A DNA stretch of 64,000 nucleotides from Acidobacteriota bacterium (GTDB lineage: Bacteria > Acidobacteriota > Thermoanaerobaculia > Gp7-AA8), in contig QHVT01000008.1 in NCBI GenBank assembly GCA_003223645.1, forward strand, positions 124,001 through 188,000, in the 5' to 3' direction. Both the position numbers and the translations under genes were made by a program. The notes beneath the pieces are model-generated. The model did not search any database. It saw only the letters and a program-made list of their open reading frames with translations, and had not been told where the DNA came from. Shown here piece by piece: positions 10,929-55,500 of the stretch (positions are counted from its first letter, which is position 1; each line of letters starts with the position of its first letter).

Positions 10929-10960
10929 GGACGTTCGATGTTAACCCGACCACCCACCCG

Positions 10961-22857: not shown

Positions 22858-22944
22858 CGCGCGGGCTCACGGGCTCATAGGCGCATGGGCTCACAGCAGA
22901 TCCCCTATGAGCCTGTGCGCCTATGAGCCCATGAGCCCATGAGC
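22858..22944. repeat. Inverted repeat of GGGCTCATAGGCGCAT words
   Basis: Tandem words CGGGCTCATAGGCGCATGGG are followed after about 15 bases by their reverse complement (CTATGAGCCTGTGCGCCTATGAGCCCATGAGCCCATGAG). The hairpin directly follows guaB on the minus strand and precedes the decarboxylase, so it could be the guaB terminator. A related word hairpin is at 32856-32935. Confidence 0.7.
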
Positions 22945-24594
<1,650 letters not shown>

Positions 24595-37987: not shown

Positions 37988-38520
37988 TGTTGGTTCGCGA
38001 GGGAAAGGGCTCGATTCGCGGGGCAAACTGTTTGATTCGCAAGGAAAGGGGATTGATGCGCGAAACAAAGAGGTTGATGCGCGAGTCAAACCGCTTGACT
38101 CGCGTAACAACCAAGGTTGATTGGCGAGGCCAATCGCTTGCCTCGCGAGGCAATGCGGTTTACCTCACGAATCAAACAGTTTGCCCCCGCAGACAAGCGT
38201 GATTGATCGAAAAGACCAGAATCTTGCCTCGCGAGGCAACCATCCAATGCGACGGCATCAAAAACATTGCCTCTCGCCAGTCATACCCTTGCCTCGCGAG
38301 GCTGGCCGTTTGCCTCGCCAATCAACCTTGGTTGTTACGCGAGGCAAACCGTTAGCCTCGCGAGGCAAGCATCTTTGATGCGAGAGGCAACGAGTCTTGT
38401 CTCGCAAATCAACACGGTCGTCTCGCGAGGCAACGCCCCTTATCTCGCGATGCAACCTGCTCGTCTCGCCAGGCAAGCGGGCTTGATGCGCGAAGCAACG
38501 GTCTGGTCTCGACCTGATGT
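37988..38520. repeat. Array of about 25 palindromic units at 21/22-base spacing
   Basis: Units follow the model TTGnYTCGCGAGGCAA plus 5-6 variable bases. The best units are the perfect palindrome TTGCCTCGCGAGGCAA (38138 and 38224). Unit starts fall at 37990, 38011, 38032, 38053, 38074, 38095, 38117, 38138, 38160, 38181, 38203, 38224, (one degraded), 38267, 38289, 38310, 38332, 38353, 38375, 38397, 38418, 38440, 38461, 38483 and 38504. From 38095 on the steps mostly alternate 21 and 22. A 30-base stretch at 38101-38130 recurs inverted at 38311-38340. It does not fit CRISPR (gaps too short, units degenerate). Confidence 0.85.
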
Positions 38521-41486: not shown

Positions 41487-41548
41487 CGCAGCGGCGGAGC
41501 TTCACACGGAGGGGATGGCGCGCGATGTTCCGGATTGGACATGTGTTG

Positions 41549-41590
41549 GATGGCGGATGGCGGATGGCGGATGGCGGATGGCGGATGGCG
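41549..41590. repeat. Tandem GGATGGC heptamers
   Basis: Six direct copies of GGATGGC just upstream of the peroxiredoxin gene. The same word, in inverted arrangement, is in the gaps at 10961 and 24862. Here only one arm is present. Confidence 0.75.
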
Positions 41591-41618
41591 ACGCTATCAT
41601 CGTCGCGAGGAGGTACGA

Positions 41619-42191
41619 ATGCTCAAACGTACGTTGATGGCGTTTCTGACGATCGCGATGTCGCTTGCGCCGGCGTTCGCGCAGGAGAAAAAACCACCGG
41701 AGCCGCCGAGATTGAAAGCGGGCGACGTCGCGCCGGACTTCACGCTGCTCGCCTATGACGGCCAGGGCGTGAAGCCGGTGTCGCTGCACGATTTCAAAGG
41801 AAAGAAGAAGGTCGTCGTCGCGTTCTTCGTCTTCGCCTTCACCGGCGGCTGAACGCGCGAAATGAAAGCCTTCCAGGCCAACCTCGCCAAACTGGAAGGC
41901 ACCGACACCCAGGTCCTGGGTGTGAGCATCGACAGCCCATTCGCCAACCACGCCTTCGCCCTCGAAAACGGCATCACCTTCCCTCTCCTCGGCGACATGA
42001 ACGCCACCGCCATCAAAGCGTACGGATTGGACAAGGAGTACACCATCGGCGGAGCCAAAATCCTCTCCGCCCGCCGCGCATCCTTCCTCATCGACAAAGA
42101 AGGAAAGATCCTCTCGGTGCAGGCGGACAACGAAGCCGTCGACCCGACGAAAATCATCGACGCGTGCGAGATTCCGCAGACGGGGAAATAG
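41619..42191 (+). CDS. Exported peroxiredoxin-like protein, probable selenoprotein (TGA = Sec78)
   Basis: From ATG 41619 (GGAGG site upstream) the frame gives a signal peptide (MLKRTLMAFLTIAMSLAPAFAQEKK), then APDFTLLAYDG...KVVVAFFVFAFTGG, then TGA at 41850-41852. It continues in the same frame TREMKAFQANLAKLEGTDTQVLGVSIDSP...SFLIDKEGKIL to 42191. The TGA is exactly where AhpC/TSA peroxiredoxins have the peroxidatic Cys (T-x-x-C-T-x-E). Fifteen bases after it a perfect 9-bp stem, GCCTTCCAG/CTGGAAGGC, holds a 15-base loop starting with G, as bacterial SECIS elements do. I read it as selenocysteine. A nonsense mutation is the alternative. Confidence 0.8.
41868..41900 (+). promoter_or_regulatory. 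SECIS-like hairpin downstream of the TGA
   Basis: GCCTTCCAG (41868-41876) pairs perfectly with CTGGAAGGC (41892-41900) around a 15-base loop beginning GCCAACC. The loop begins 24 bases after the TGA, inside the window accepted for bacterial SECIS elements, and has the required G among its first two bases. The loop is one base longer than usual models allow. Confidence 0.65.
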
Positions 42192-43588: not shown

Positions 43589-45597
43589 ACCGGCGCACGA
43601 CCCTCTTGTGTTTCATGCTCGCAGCAGCGGCTTCCGGATCTGCGCAGAGTCTGACGGTGACTCCGCAACAGGTCTATGTCCTCGAGTGTCAGGAAACGTT
43701 CGTTACGCTTCAGGGAACAAACCTGGCCGGAACATCCTCGACCCTGGTCGACTTCGTAGCGCCCGGCGGACAGGTTTTCGAATTGGAACCGAATACCGTC
43801 GCGGCCGATCAACTCATCGTCTGGATTCCTTTGGACGTCGCGTATAGCGCTGGCAACTATGCCGTCAGTGTGAAAGCCATCGACACAAACGGTACGCGTA
43901 CGATCGGGCCGGCGACACTGTTGGTCGTGGAGCGGTCTGCCAACGGTCCACCGGGCCTGTCTTTACCGGAGGTCGTCGTCGCCGATGCAACCTCATCATC
44001 GGGTGCATACGTAACGTTCGATGCCGGCGGTGCGAATTGCGACCATCCCTCTGGTTCTCTATTTCCGATCGGCTCGACAACCGTGACATGCTCCGCGTCC
44101 AACGGCTTCGGCACGACGACGGGCACATTTTCCGTTGTCGTGCTCTCGACGACGGGACCGCCGATTCTCACGCTTCCGGAAGTCGTGGTGACGGAGGCGA
44201 CGTCGGCGTCCGGCGCAAACGTGTCTTTCGATGCCGGCGGCGCGAGTTGCGACCGCGCATCCGGCTCCGCCTTTGCCATGGGCACTACGACGGTCACCTG
44301 CTCGATGACGAACAGCTATGGCACATCCACGGGCACATTCCTCGTCGTGGTGACTGACACAGTGTTGCCGGCACTGTCGCTTCCGTCAGACATTACGAGC
44401 GGAAATCCGGTCGTCAACTACACGGCTACGGCGACGGACAATATCGACGGCCCAATCCCGGTTTCGTGTAGCCCGCCGTCAGGTTCGACGTTCCAAGCCG
44501 GCGCTACGACCGTTCAATGCAACGCGACCGATACGCATGCCAACTCGGCGTACGGTTCGTTCACGGTGACGATCATTTCGCCGTCGCTCTCGGATTTCAT
44601 CGCATCGCAGAGCGCTTATCAACTCAATAACGCGTCGAGCGGCAACGTGACGTACACCTCGAACGTGCCGCTGACGCTCACAGAGACATTGACGATCCGC
44701 TCCGATGCTACGGGCCAGATCGTACGTACTCTTTTCAGCGGCGTTCGCAATTCAGGCAGCTATCAAGACACATGGGACGGCAAGAACGACTCCGGTCAGC
44801 TCGTGCCGGACGGTAGTTACCGCTACTTCGTCACCGTCTCCGCGAATGGATCGAGCTTCACGTGGGACGGCGGCACGCACTATGCCGGCACGACGGCAAC
44901 GCAGCTGCCTTATGCGCTTTGCCGTAATGACGCCGGCACGCTGGTCTCCTGCAACGACAGCAGCATCGTGTTCGATCCGTACGCCAATAAGCCGCTGCGT
45001 GTGAACTACTGCGCCGGCGCCGGAACTCCGCCGTCCTGCACCGGCACGACTCCCTTCATCGTCGTTGGAAAGGCCGTCTTCGTCAGCGAGACCGACGACA
45101 GTTGCTCAGGAACGAACTGCTTCCTCAATGAATATCAATCGAGCGGCCCGCACGAGCTCCTCTGGTATGGCCATGGCATCACCAGCCTCTATCTCGGCGG
45201 CGCTACCGGTCTCACGGTGATCCGCCGCAACGATATCTGGCCGCGTAATTTGACGCTCGTCTATGGCACCGCGCCTCAATTATCCAATCTCACCGTCTCC
45301 TGGCTCATCTTCAATCCCGCTGGCCCATCAGTCGAAGAGGTGCGAATGAACGTGACGACATTCCAATCGCGAACCGTCACGCTCAAGGGCGAGTTCAAGA
45401 ACGTCACCTCCGGTTCGATTCTGCGGACGATTGCAACAGGAGTTCAGTTGGCAGGCCAGGTGGTCCTGACGTGGAACGGCCGTGCCGATAACGGGGCATG
45501 GGTCGCACCGGGCGTCTATGAGGCGACGATCACGGTCACGGACTCCGGAGGCAGTTCCACGGTTCTGAAGCCTTTGATCACGGTGCGCTATGAATGA
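43585..45597 (+). CDS. Exported HYR-domain and FlgD-Ig protein (second gene of Rhs operon)
   Basis: A 670-residue secreted protein. After signal peptide MNRRTTLLCFMLAAAASGSAQ comes an IPT/TIG-like domain (PQQVYVLECQETFVTLQGTNL). Three HYR-like repeats follow, each with the S-x-F-x-x-G-x-T-T-V-x-C motif (about 165-200, 230-265, 325-355). FlgD-Ig-like domains read TWDGKNDSGQLVPDGSYRYFVTV and LTWNGRADNGAWVAPGVYEATITV. HYR and FlgD-Ig domains are extracellular adhesion or assembly folds. The 3' end overlaps the Rhs gene. Confidence 0.82.
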   Translation: MNRRTTLLCFMLAAAASGSAQSLTVTPQQVYVLECQETFVTLQGTNLAGTSSTLVDFVAPGGQVFELEPNTVAADQLIVWIPLDVAYSAGNYAVSVKAIDTNGTRTIGPATLLVVERSANGPPGLSLPEVVVADATSSSGAYVTFDAGGANCDHPSGSLFPIGSTTVTCSASNGFGTTTGTFSVVVLSTTGPPILTLPEVVVTEATSASGANVSFDAGGASCDRASGSAFAMGTTTVTCSMTNSYGTSTGTFLVVVTDTVLPALSLPSDITSGNPVVNYTATATDNIDGPIPVSCSPPSGSTFQAGATTVQCNATDTHANSAYGSFTVTIISPSLSDFIASQSAYQLNNASSGNVTYTSNVPLTLTETLTIRSDATGQIVRTLFSGVRNSGSYQDTWDGKNDSGQLVPDGSYRYFVTVSANGSSFTWDGGTHYAGTTATQLPYALCRNDAGTLVSCNDSSIVFDPYANKPLRVNYCAGAGTPPSCTGTTPFIVVGKAVFVSETDDSCSGTNCFLNEYQSSGPHELLWYGHGITSLYLGGATGLTVIRRNDIWPRNLTLVYGTAPQLSNLTVSWLIFNPAGPSVEEVRMNVTTFQSRTVTLKGEFKNVTSGSILRTIATGVQLAGQVVLTWNGRADNGAWVAPGVYEATITVTDSGGSSTVLKPLITVRYE

Positions 45598-45610
45598 GGG
45601 TCTGAAGACG

Positions 45611-48600
45611 ATGAGACTGATTCGCGCCCTGCTGCTGTCCGCCTGTGCGCTGTTCGTAGCCATCCCGGCCTGGGCGACGTATTGCGTTCCACCAAAGGCG
45701 CCCGCCGCGCCGCCGGCTCCCGAGCCGAATCCTCCCGTTTGCGACCCGCAGTGTCACAACTGCTCTGCATCGCCCTGTTATCCCGCGTTCGGTACTTACG
45801 TCGACGAGACGACGGATCTCCGAATTCCGACGGCAGGGTTCCCACTGACGGTTTCGCGTCGCTATGACAGCGCGCGTCCGACGGACGGGCCGCTCGGGGC
45901 AGGCTGGTCGTCCAGTTTGACCGCGCGGCTCTACTACGCTGCATATTTGCAAGCGGCTCCGAATACATACTCGTATGAGGCGGACGTGATGATGCCGAGC
46001 GGCTCCGTCTTCCGGTTCACGAGCGCGGGTAGCACGTTCAGTCCGCCGTTCGGACGTCGCGACACGCTGGTCCACAATGGCAATGGGACCTGGACGTTGA
46101 CGCTTCAGAACTCGCGCACGATTTACCTGTTCGGCGCCGACGGCTCGCTGCAATCGATCACCGACGGCTACGGCAACGCGATCACCTTCACGTATGACGG
46201 AAACGGCCGTGTACAACGAATGGCCGACGCCGCCGGGTCCGGACGCTATGTCGACGTCACGTGGGGACCGAATGGAAGGATCGCCTCCGTAACCGATCAC
46301 TCCGGCCATACATTCAAATACTTTTACGAGTCCGTCGCTGCCACGCTCACCAGCGTCTCGGATCCGCTCGTATCGTCGGACGCATCGCAACGAACGACCT
46401 ATTACACCTACGTTTCCGGTCGCTTCGGTCCGGTGATCAGCCGAATCGAGGACCGCTGGCATCGGCTGATCTCCGATATCGCCTGGCAATCCGACGGAAA
46501 GCTGAAGAGCTACACCGAAGGCGCCTACAACAATGTCACTCCTTCGCTGTCGACCGGTGAAAAATACACGTACACCTATTCGACGTCTTCGGTCAATAAG
46601 ACCGATTCTTTCGGAACGCGCACCTTCACATTCAACGCAGACGGACAAATCACGGATCGCGTTACCTACAATGCCGCCGGCCAGCCCGCGACGACGATCG
46701 ATGACCTCGGAAATTCCACCGGGTATACCTACAACGCCCGCGGGAACGTCGCTACGATGACTCGCGGCGGCCTCACGTTCAGCTACACGTATGACGGGAC
46801 TTTTCAGGATCAGGTGGCTTCGATCACACCGAATCCGGCGGCGTCGTGGCCGGGTTCGAGATACACCTACTTCCCCGCGGGCAGCCCTGCTCCGGGAGCG
46901 CTCAAGGAAGTCTTTCAGATCCGAAAAGACGGAACGACCGCCGACCTCATCGCATCGTACACGTACAACTCCCGGGGACAGGTGGCAACAAGCACTGTTT
47001 ACGGTGTAGACACTGAATATTTTTATAATGCCGCGGGCGACCTCACGTCGGCCCACACGTCCCTCGGGACCACGTGCTATTCCTATGATTCACTCGGCCG
47101 AACGACGTCTTCGACCGATGCGACCGGGCAATCGACGTCGTATTCATACGATGCGCTCGGCCGCGTCACGGGCGTCACATTGCCGAAACCGTCCACCATC
47201 TCGACGCTGAATTTCACAACGACCTATGTGTATGACGAATATGACCCGTCGGACGGCTTGGCCTACACTCGCGTCACAGACCCTAATGGACGAGTTACGA
47301 GACAAGGTTACGACGGGCTCGGCAAGCTCTCCAAATCCATCGATGCGGCCGGCAACGCGACGCTCTACTCCTATCAGTACAACCTCCTGCGCTCGATCGC
47401 CGACGCAAACGCCAACGTCACCACCTATTCGTACGACGGAAACCGGAATCTCGCATCGACGACGTTCCCGGACGGCAACATCGAACGCTATGTAACCGGC
47501 GTCGCCGGCACGCTGACTCAGGTCACCGACCGCAGGGGCATGTTGACGCGATATACGTACGATGCGTTCAATCACGTCGTGAAGATCGAATATCTGGCGA
47601 GCAACGTGACGGTAAATTACAGCTGGCTCGGAAACCTGCCGTCCGGCTCGAGCGAAGTCGCGAACAACGTTCTCAAATACACGGACGTGATCGAATACGA
47701 CGACCGCTTCCGACTTCAGAAAGAGGAGCGCCTCGGCGGCTACAAGATCACCTATTCGTATATCCTTGGCGATCCGAAGATCGCCGGCTATACGGTCACG
47801 CCGCCTTCGGGCTCGAGCGAGCCTCCTATCACGCTGTCCTATGGCTACGGCGCCGGCGGCGTGACTTCGATCAGCGCGAGCACGATTCCCGGCTCATTCA
47901 CGTATACCTACACACAAAACGGACAATACGACACCATCACCTTCCCGAACGGCCAACAGCGCAAGTATGAATACGACCTGCAGGGCCGTCTGACCCACAT
48001 CGCCAACACGCTGCCGGGACTAGGCAACGTCGTCGATTACCAATACGGCTACGATTACAACTGGGCGACTTCGGCATACACCATGCTCGGCCAGCGTACC
48101 GGCGTGACAACGAACACCGCGTCCAACACAGGCGGGCAGCCGAATGGCCTTACGAAGTACTATTACGACGTGATATACCAGCTGACCAAAGCAACGTATC
48201 CCGACGCCACGTCCGACGAATGGACCTACGACGCCATCGGGAACCGCACCAGCGCGAAAATGTCCGGTGCCCTCGCGAACTACACATACGACCAAAACAC
48301 CGCCGGCAACAACACCACCCGTCTTCGCTCGTACACCGGTTCCAACACGTTCACCTACGACGCCAACGGCAACATGCTGGCCGGACCGAACGGATCGTTC
48401 ACGTGGGATCATGCAAACTGCCTTTCCACGTTCGGTCCGCAGGTATTCGAGTACGACGCTCGAGGACGCCGCACATCGACCGGCGTGCCCAGTGCCCCGC
48501 TTTCTCTGATCAATCAAGGCCTCAACGTCGTCCGGGAACGTGACTCGTACGGCACACGGAACGACTACATCTTCGGACCGGGCATTGACGAGCCGCTGGC

Positions 48601-49306
48601 CCGGCAGTCCGCTTCCGGCGCAGTGACCTACTTCGTCGTGGACGGCCTTGGCTCGATTACGGCGACGGTCGAAAACGGAGCGCCGGTGGATGGAGCGAGG
48701 TACCGGCCGTTTGGGACCGGAGGTCCCCCCGCACAGACGCGCTTCGGCTACACCGCACGTGAGGCCGTTGCCGGCGACCTGTACTACTACCGATCCCGAT
48801 ATTATGACGGATCCCTGGGTCGATTTATTAGCGAAGATCCAGTTAGATTCAGAGCTGGCGTTAATTTTTACAGCTATACGCGGTCTGACCCAGTGAATTA
48901 TCGCGACCCATCAGGCTTGTTCGCCGCAGCGGCTGTGGAGGTCGTTGTTGTCGTTGGAGGCGTCGTAATCGTTGGGGGGATGCTATGGGGCGCTATAAAT
49001 AATGTCGACTTTTCCCATCCGCCATTTCCCACGACCCTACCTCCGTTGGCGGCCAAGCCGCCGAACTGGTACCCGCCGCCACCTCCATCTGATCCGAGCA
49101 AATACCAGCCAAAATATCCCGATCCAGCTGATTATCCTCATATTCAGGGTCCGGAACCTCCGATAACACCTCCTAATGTCGATCAATGTACTCAGATATG
49201 CCTTTTTGCCGGTAGTCTATGCCCGGGCCCCGCAAAGAACAAAGCCACAGCATTATGCTTGGCCTGTCTGATATCGCAGTTTGTGGATCCAAGCAATTTC
49301 AAATAG
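45611..49306 (+). CDS. Rhs/YD-repeat protein with a short membrane/Cys-rich C-terminal tip
   Basis: About 1231 residues: signal peptide (MRLIRALLLSACALFVAIPAWA), Cys-rich linker (VCDPQCHNCSASPC), a DUF6531-like N-terminal segment (GTYVDETTDLRIPTAGFPLTVSRRY), then some 25 YD repeats (G-x3-R-Y-x-YD, e.g. YDALGRVTGV). The Rhs core ends LGRFISEDPVRFRAGVNFYSYTRSDPVNYRDPSGL. Behind it the tip has a membrane-like helix (VEVVVVVGGVVIVGGMLW), a Pro-rich hinge and 40 residues with five Cys ending QFVDPSNFK. In Rhs proteins the sheath encloses a toxic tip. ATG 45590 is an alternative start. A Sel1 gene follows four bases after the stop. Confidence 0.9.
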   Translation: MRLIRALLLSACALFVAIPAWATYCVPPKAPAAPPAPEPNPPVCDPQCHNCSASPCYPAFGTYVDETTDLRIPTAGFPLTVSRRYDSARPTDGPLGAGWSSSLTARLYYAAYLQAAPNTYSYEADVMMPSGSVFRFTSAGSTFSPPFGRRDTLVHNGNGTWTLTLQNSRTIYLFGADGSLQSITDGYGNAITFTYDGNGRVQRMADAAGSGRYVDVTWGPNGRIASVTDHSGHTFKYFYESVAATLTSVSDPLVSSDASQRTTYYTYVSGRFGPVISRIEDRWHRLISDIAWQSDGKLKSYTEGAYNNVTPSLSTGEKYTYTYSTSSVNKTDSFGTRTFTFNADGQITDRVTYNAAGQPATTIDDLGNSTGYTYNARGNVATMTRGGLTFSYTYDGTFQDQVASITPNPAASWPGSRYTYFPAGSPAPGALKEVFQIRKDGTTADLIASYTYNSRGQVATSTVYGVDTEYFYNAAGDLTSAHTSLGTTCYSYDSLGRTTSSTDATGQSTSYSYDALGRVTGVTLPKPSTISTLNFTTTYVYDEYDPSDGLAYTRVTDPNGRVTRQGYDGLGKLSKSIDAAGNATLYSYQYNLLRSIADANANVTTYSYDGNRNLASTTFPDGNIERYVTGVAGTLTQVTDRRGMLTRYTYDAFNHVVKIEYLASNVTVNYSWLGNLPSGSSEVANNVLKYTDVIEYDDRFRLQKEERLGGYKITYSYILGDPKIAGYTVTPPSGSSEPPITLSYGYGAGGVTSISASTIPGSFTYTYTQNGQYDTITFPNGQQRKYEYDLQGRLTHIANTLPGLGNVVDYQYGYDYNWATSAYTMLGQRTGVTTNTASNTGGQPNGLTKYYYDVIYQLTKATYPDATSDEWTYDAIGNRTSAKMSGALANYTYDQNTAGNNTTRLRSYTGSNTFTYDANGNMLAGPNGSFTWDHANCLSTFGPQVFEYDARGRRTSTGVPSAPLSLINQGLNVVRERDSYGTRNDYIFGPGIDEPLARQSASGAVTYFVVDGLGSITATVENGAPVDGARYRPFGTGGPPAQTRFGYTAREAVAGDLYYYRSRYYDGSLGRFISEDPVRFRAGVNFYSYTRSDPVNYRDPSGLFAAAAVEVVVVVGGVVIVGGMLWGAINNVDFSHPPFPTTLPPLAAKPPNWYPPPPPSDPSKYQPKYPDPADYPHIQGPEPPITPPNVDQCTQICLFAGSLCPGPAKNKATALCLACLISQFVDPSNFK

Positions 49307-55009: not shown

Positions 55010-55500
55010 AGCTTCATAGGGGTAGGGAGAGCCGGTTAAGGCTCCCCCTCCCTCCGAACCGGACTAGCAGATCTCCCGCATCCGGCTCTCCAGTCGGTGG
55101 TTCTCAACGAGGCTGGATGAGCTGCCGATAGGCCTCACTCATGGTGAAGAGACCTATTTGCTGAAAGTAGGCGTTTGGCCAGCGTTGATGATCGATACCA
55201 CACGCAAGTCCACGGCGATGCTGTCGATAACGAAGGATCGTCAATATCCGTAACCTGCACGCTTCCCATGAAGGGGAGTCGGACGAGCAGGTGTGTCGCC
55301 GACCCAGTCTGTGTTGAGTCCATCGCGAGAGCAGCGTAGATCCGGCAACAGGTTGTAAGCGAGAGCAGGCTGCGCAACGCACGGGAGTGCGTCTACTGGC
55401 AACCGGGGAAGCTTTGCGGGGCGAGTCCTGCGTCGGTTCGATGTGAGACCAAACGCCCGGTTGAAATCGGCTTGCAATCACGGCGGATGCGCTTTTATTG
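55010..55500 (-). mobile_element. Group II intron remnant (3' end of maturase and domain V)
   Basis: On the minus strand, the frame ending at 55104 reads HQRWPNAYFQQIGLFTMSEAYRQLIQPR, the C-terminal signature of bacterial group II intron reverse transcriptases (RWPN-x-YF-x-x-x-GLF). Upstream coding is broken by frameshifts and no polymerase domain remains. Just after the stop comes a domain V hairpin at 55088-55056, beginning GAGCCGGATGCGGG and ending CCGGTTC. Typical Pro/Gly-rich post-intron sequence follows to 55010. It is dead as a mobile intron. Confidence 0.75.

What the first reader, a model, noticed from the sequence alone, without database searches (positions are those of the whole stretch)
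41619..42191. Exported peroxiredoxin with Sec in place of the peroxidatic Cys and a SECIS-like hairpin
In-frame TGA (41850-41852) replaces exactly the active-site Cys of an AhpC/TSA-type protein (T-x-x-[U]-T-x-E). The reading frame is intact on both sides and a signal peptide is present. A perfect 9-bp stem 15 bases after the TGA closes a loop beginning with G, matching bacterial SECIS rules. A secreted selenocysteine peroxiredoxin would be a strong antioxidant outside the cytosol. The other frames show no alternative gene, and the downstream half has a normal peroxiredoxin end.
Basis: partly seen in the sequence, partly recalled or inferred. Interest (0 to 1): 0.85.

Follow-up and report, generated by a model that had tools for sequence, protein, structure and literature searches.

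The report
Exported selenocysteine peroxiredoxin with distant SECIS
This soil bacterium (Acidobacteriota) makes an exported peroxide-destroying enzyme that carries selenium at its active site, and the RNA signal that tells the ribosome to insert the selenium amino acid seems to be an unusual two-hairpin version whose recognition loop lies well beyond the distance that the usual rule allows.

Summary
In detail: window 41619-42191 is one intact AhpC/TSA reading frame, with TGA at 41850-41852 exactly at the peroxidatic position and a predicted signal peptide. It is a real selenoprotein gene. The genome has selA, selB, selD (itself with an in-frame TGA) and a tRNA-Sec. At stringent cut-offs, 113 of 114 homologues across Acidobacteriota carry TGA here and none has Cys; the exception is a small in-frame deletion. 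All 26 carriers in a 297-genome sample have selA. The 9-bp stem is conserved, but its 15-nt loop breaks the bacterial SECIS model, and 18% of synonymous resamplings form it anyway. The likelier SelB-binding hairpin lies further on, at 41905-41923 (ACACCCAG-GUC-CUGGGUGU), 60 nt after UGA against the usual 16-37. It shows frozen synonymous codons (GGT 39/40, ACC 40/40), a free loop base, and compensatory changes at every pair that varies. A sister clade of the same gene has instead a covarying canonical hairpin at 23 nt. I read this as a two-part SECIS: a spacer helix plus a distal recognition hairpin. SelB binding and the spacer role are inferred, not shown. New variant of a known kind.

The parts
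41607..41613 (+). Shine-Dalgarno-like GAGGAGG before the ATG (approximate)
   Evidence: sequence
41619..42191 (+). Peroxiredoxin (AhpC/TSA) gene, 190 aa with Sec at residue 78
   Evidence: orthologues
41619..41684 (+). Predicted signal peptide (about residues 1-21/22, AFA|Q); cleavage point approximate
   Evidence: sequence reading; same N-terminal type in homologues
41850..41852 (+). In-frame TGA read as selenocysteine, peroxidatic position
   Evidence: TGA in 113 of 114 homologues, no Cys form at these cut-offs
41868..41900 (+). Proximal helix P1: GCCTTCCAG / CTGGAAGGC, 15-nt loop at 41877-41891; inferred spacer helix
41905..41923 (+). Distal hairpin P2: ACACCCAG-GTC-CTGGGTGT, loop 41913-41915; inferred SelB-binding part of the SECIS
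42165..42167 (+). Codon for Cys183, the only other Cys of the protein, invariant in the family; inferred resolving Cys
   Evidence: A3 column C161 = residue 183, 32 of 32

Best explanation
The gene encodes an exported AhpC/BCP-type peroxiredoxin whose peroxidatic residue is selenocysteine (Sec78). SelB with Sec-tRNA reads the UGA under direction of a two-part RNA signal in the coding sequence. A proximal helix (P1, from 15 nt after the UGA) folds away the intervening mRNA, so that a distal hairpin (P2, triloop G-U-N, loop 60 nt after UGA) reaches the decoding ribosome and is bound by SelB. The enzyme reduces peroxides in the periplasm through Sec78. The selenenic acid formed is resolved by the invariant Cys183 and recycled by a periplasmic thioredoxin-like reductant. 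Shown here: frame, family, TGA conservation, Sec machinery, structural constraint on P2 and, less strongly, on P1. Inferred: SelB binding to P2, the spacer role of P1, export, peroxidase activity, the resolving role of Cys183 and the reductant.
For: Machinery: selB at 375 bits against a cut-off of 242, tRNA-Sec 69.9 bits and confirmed by ARAGORN with anticodon TCA, selA 473.7 bits, selD 373.9 bits with its own in-frame TGA. Conservation: 27/27 in the phylum sample, 85/85 in family f19, 7/8 in f1, 3/3 in f37 carry TGA. All 26 carrier genomes have selA against 192/297 overall. P2: 98% of cells paired and three pairs with changes on both sides, 5 such cells against 0.7 in shuffles, 0/500. f37 has AUGCCCAG-GUG-CUGGGCAU at the same place. 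Synonymous sites: ACC 40/40, CAG 39/40, GGT 39/40, AGC 39/40 in and beside P2 and TTC 33/34, CAG 39/40, CTG 35/36 in P1, while the loop codon GTN is free. Excess synonymous identity in these columns is 0.284 against 0.028 elsewhere, p about 1e-5. P1 has a U-A to C-G double change, and f37 keeps a P1 of different sequence. Internal control: clade B has no structure at the P2 site (4.6 of 8 pairs, at chance) but a covarying triloop hairpin at 23 nt (score 0.160 against 0.061, 0/500). In this genome the second Sec-Prx (L003) folds to a GUU triloop 17 nt after UGA, and selD can form a GGA triloop there (by eye). Fold: AlphaFold pLDDT 91.3, best PDB match Bcp4 3hjp.
Against: No experiment. P2's 60-nt spacing is outside the published 16-37 nt, so SelB use of P2 is an extrapolation. 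P1 pairing is largely given by the amino-acid sequence (5.8 observed against 5.17 expected pairs). The 40 clade A sequences are related, which weakens any p-value; independent double changes are few (three pairs in P2). Pro of the Prx motif PxxxTxxC is replaced by Val. For selD the GGA triloop hairpin is not the minimum-energy fold.
Confidence: 0.78

Rival explanations
1. Selenoprotein as above, but the proximal 9-bp stem alone is the SECIS; P2 is conserved for another reason.
For: The stem is at a normal distance (loop 24 nt after UGA) and its loop starts with G in this gene. P1 arms also show frozen codons.
Against: 15-nt loop against 3-9 nt in the model. The loop sequence is not conserved and often starts with C (CAGCAGAA) in family f19. 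P2 has the stronger constraint, the G-U-N triloop seen in this genome's other Sec-Prx gene, and better covariation.
Confidence: 0.12
2. Sec insertion is real and P2 is a second, efficiency-tuning element (for example a ribosome-pausing hairpin), with SelB binding P1 or an alternative fold that mixes the two.
For: Both helices are conserved together in two separate branches.
Against: P2 keeps the G-U loop typical of SelB targets and lets only the last loop base vary. Clade B works with one triloop hairpin only.
Confidence: 0.08
3. Pseudogene or assembly error: the TGA is a true stop and the gene is dying.
For: One relative (G299, L062) has an in-frame deletion removing Sec and its neighbours.
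Against: TGA is at the same codon in 113 of 114 genes, the protein is conserved on both sides, and the Sec machinery is complete.
Confidence: 0.01

Closest known systems
Selenocysteine peroxiredoxin family (Prx, PF00578, TxxU; PrxU of Eubacterium acidaminophilum, NF040737)
   Same: AhpC/TSA fold, Sec in place of the peroxidatic Cys, T-x-x-U motif
   Different: Scores 57.9 bits against a cut-off of 270 for PrxU; signal peptide; Val, Ile or Ser where the motif Pro usually is; C-terminal invariant Cys
BCP/PrxQ-type peroxiredoxins (S. solfataricus Bcp4 3hjp, S. tokodaii 2ywn) and AhpE
   Same: Closest solved relatives by sequence and fold
   Different: Cys enzymes, not exported as far as known; no Sec, no signal peptide
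Canonical bacterial SECIS (bSECISearch model; E. coli fdhF)
   Same: P2 has a small loop with G then U and a stem of 8 bp; fdhF also carries GGU in its loop (own knowledge)
   Different: 60 nt from UGA to loop instead of 16-37, with a conserved helix in between
Clade B orthologues of the same gene (families f31, f74, f50, f64, f55)
   Same: Same exported Sec peroxiredoxin
   Different: Compact canonical hairpin GGCGUAUCA-GGC-UGAUA(U)CGCC with loop 23 nt after UGA

Membership tests
Selenoprotein (bacterial type) | In-frame TGA with conserved coding on both sides | tested here: met
Selenoprotein (bacterial type) | selA, selB, selC, selD in the same genome | tested here: met
Selenoprotein (bacterial type) | Sec present in the purified protein | not testable with these tools
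   needs 75Se labelling or mass spectrometry
Peroxiredoxin (AhpC/TSA, BCP-like) | Pfam AhpC-TSA over its gathering score | tested here: met
   105.7 bits against 26
Peroxiredoxin (AhpC/TSA, BCP-like) | Thr three residues before the peroxidatic residue and an invariant downstream Arg | tested here: met
   T75, U78 and R153 invariant in 32 sequences
Peroxiredoxin (AhpC/TSA, BCP-like) | Pro of the PxxxTxxC motif | tested here: not met
   V71 here; V, I or S in relatives, Pro only in L035
Peroxiredoxin (AhpC/TSA, BCP-like) | Thioredoxin fold of peroxiredoxins | tested here: met
   AlphaFold model pLDDT 91.3; top PDB match Bcp4 E 2e-14
PrxU (NF040737) | Score over the curated cut-off | tested here: not met
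   57.9 bits against 270
[quoted passage not shown]
   loop GTC, 8 bp
Canonical bacterial SECIS (P2) | 16-37 nt between UGA and loop | tested here: not met
   60 nt (41853-41912)
   15 nt
   24 nt
SECIS in general | SelB binding and UGA decoding | not testable with these tools
   needs a binding assay and a reporter

The most novel reading that the evidence does not exclude
A distinct class of bacterial SECIS: a long-range two-part element in which a conserved spacer helix lets SelB use a G-U-N triloop hairpin about 60 nt downstream of UGA. It occurs in at least two separate branches of Acidobacteriota, while sister branches of the same gene use the compact canonical form, so the signal has moved within one gene family.
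Probability: 0.7. Interest if true: 0.75.

Novelty: new variant of a known kind. Interest (0 to 1): 0.62.

Why it matters
Published reviews say that some bacterial selenoprotein genes lack a SECIS that fits the model and that other classes must exist (PMC13188914, PMC12013277). This family gives a defined, testable candidate: same gene, two SECIS layouts, with clear silent mutations to try. If right, selenoprotein searches that stop at 37 nt miss genes, and the geometry of SelB delivery is more flexible than thought. It also documents a widespread exported selenium peroxidase in a major soil phylum in which about two thirds of the sampled genomes have selA.

Tried and rejected
Pseudogene: rejected by TGA conservation and complete Sec machinery. 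Rfam: no match over the gene even at E up to 1, so no known RNA family helps. Viral contigs: no relatives. Conserved neighbours: ORFs around L029 and L031 were read by eye and showed none; L031 has an msrA-like ORF upstream. Cys orthologues: at E up to 1e-20 nearly all matches that extend over the C-terminal Cys carry TGA, and matches without TGA mostly stop near residue 165-169, i.e. other Prx families. P1 as a sufficient SECIS: judged less likely, see rivals. Literature: paper searches found no report of this family in Acidobacteria or of an exported Sec peroxiredoxin; only open-access papers are held.

Full report
The gene. Window 41619-42191 translates, with TGA read as Sec, into 190 residues that match AhpC-TSA across the TGA. 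The TGA at 41850-41852 is codon 78, in AFTGG-U-TRE, exactly the peroxidatic position. The N-terminus reads as a signal peptide, and homologues start in the same way. AlphaFold gives a confident model (pLDDT 91.3), and the closest solved folds are BCP/PrxQ-type peroxiredoxins, first Bcp4 of S. solfataricus, which is also among the best sequence hits.

The genome decodes UGA as Sec. selB, selA, selD and a tRNA-Sec with anticodon TCA are present. selD itself has an in-frame TGA, and a second, BCP-type Sec peroxiredoxin (FYPKADTPG-U-TKE) lies at G000:C4:58825-59229.

Conservation. In 297 genomes drawn from the phylum, 26 carry 27 orthologues at E up to 1e-30, all with one TGA inside. All 26 genomes are in the list of selA carriers, against 192 of 297 overall; by my arithmetic chance would give this about once in 1e5 if genomes were independent, which they are not. 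Family f19 gives 85 of 85, family f1 7 of 8, and f37 3 of 3. Without double counting that is 113 of 114. The exception, L062, lacks Sec and its neighbours through a 24-nt in-frame deletion in an incomplete genome. No Cys form appears at these cut-offs.

The proximal stem. 17.6% of synonymous resamplings of the same protein keep all 9 pairs, so by itself it is weak evidence. Its core is conserved in 40 clade A sequences (96.7% of cells paired, with a U-A to C-G double change), and codons in its arms are frozen (TTC 33/34, CAG 39/40, CTG 35/36) while those in its loop vary.

The distal hairpin. In codons +18 to +24 after the TGA lies a perfect 8-bp hairpin, ACACCCAG-GUC-CUGGGUGU (41905-41923). 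In 43 sequences 98% of cells pair, and each of the three pairs that vary has at least one compensatory double change. The clearest case is f37: AUGCCCAG-GUG-CUGGGCAU. GGT is used for Gly +23 in 39 of 40, although GGT is rare at most other conserved Gly of the gene; ACC at Thr +19 is 40/40 and AGC at Ser +25 is 39/40. The loop codon GTN uses all four codons. Columns of P1 and P2 show an excess synonymous identity of 0.284 against 0.028 elsewhere (Mann-Whitney p 1.2e-5, not corrected for relatedness).

The internal control. Clade B (f31, f74 and others) encodes the same protein but has no pairing at the P2 site beyond chance. It has instead GGCGUAUCA-GGC-UGAUA(U)CGCC with loop 23 nt after UGA, four pairs with double changes and a covariation score of 0.160 against 0.061 (0/500 shuffles). 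In this genome the second Sec peroxiredoxin folds to a GUU triloop at 17 nt; selD can form a GGA triloop at 17 nt, which I saw by eye and which is not its minimum-energy fold. P2's GUN triloop is of that kind, while P1's 15-nt loop is not.

Tree. Clade A's 40 sequences form one group; the three f37 sequences with the same layout are nested among clade B with strong support, so the label needs at least two changes. Whether layout A is ancestral or arose twice is open.

Enzyme mechanism. Sec78 and Cys183 are the only selenol/thiol residues of the protein; both are invariant in 32 sequences, as are Thr75 and Arg153. This suggests a 2-Cys-like cycle with a selenenylsulfide. That the partners come close in space was not measured. 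The motif Pro is replaced by Val (L035 keeps Pro).

Literature. Sec peroxiredoxins are a known family. A 2006 survey counted four selenoproteins in three families in Acidobacteria (PMC1794560). I found no report of this exported family or of a SECIS at this distance, in an open-access library only. Reviews state that some bacterial SECIS elements do not fit the model.

Verdict. A genuine exported selenoprotein (export by sequence reading); a new variant of a known kind for the enzyme; the two-part long-range SECIS is the surprising part and is well supported as a conserved RNA structure, but SelB binding is inferred.

Noticed in passing
G000:C4:58825-59229 (L003, TGA codon starting at 1773, minus strand): Second Sec peroxiredoxin in the same genome, BCP/PrxQ type (PKADTPG-U-TKE), with a hairpin GGUUCCGG-GUU-CCGGGACC 17 nt after UGA.
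   Followed up: partly
L062 (G299:C82): The one relative without the TGA: a 24-nt in-frame deletion replaces Sec and its neighbours by Trp. Decay or assembly artefact.
   Followed up: partly
window 41548-41590: Perfect 7-bp tandem repeat GGATGGC x6 just upstream of the gene; related 7-bp repeats at 10960 and 24936.
   Followed up: no
window 55016-55090, minus strand: Rfam match to group II intron domain (RF00029, 51 bits).
   Followed up: no
L022, about 2480-2700: Dense repeats of the type GCGCATAGGCTCATAGG directly upstream of selD; similar CCTATGAG repeats in the window at 22904-22947.
   Followed up: no
window 37994-38476: Several 21-bp and 43-bp imperfect tandem repeats in a region without a clear gene.
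   Followed up: no
window 45590-49306: Large RHS/YD-repeat type protein gene (1238 aa).
   Followed up: no
L031 3043-3513: A methionine sulfoxide reductase A-like ORF directly upstream of the Sec peroxiredoxin in this relative.
   Followed up: no
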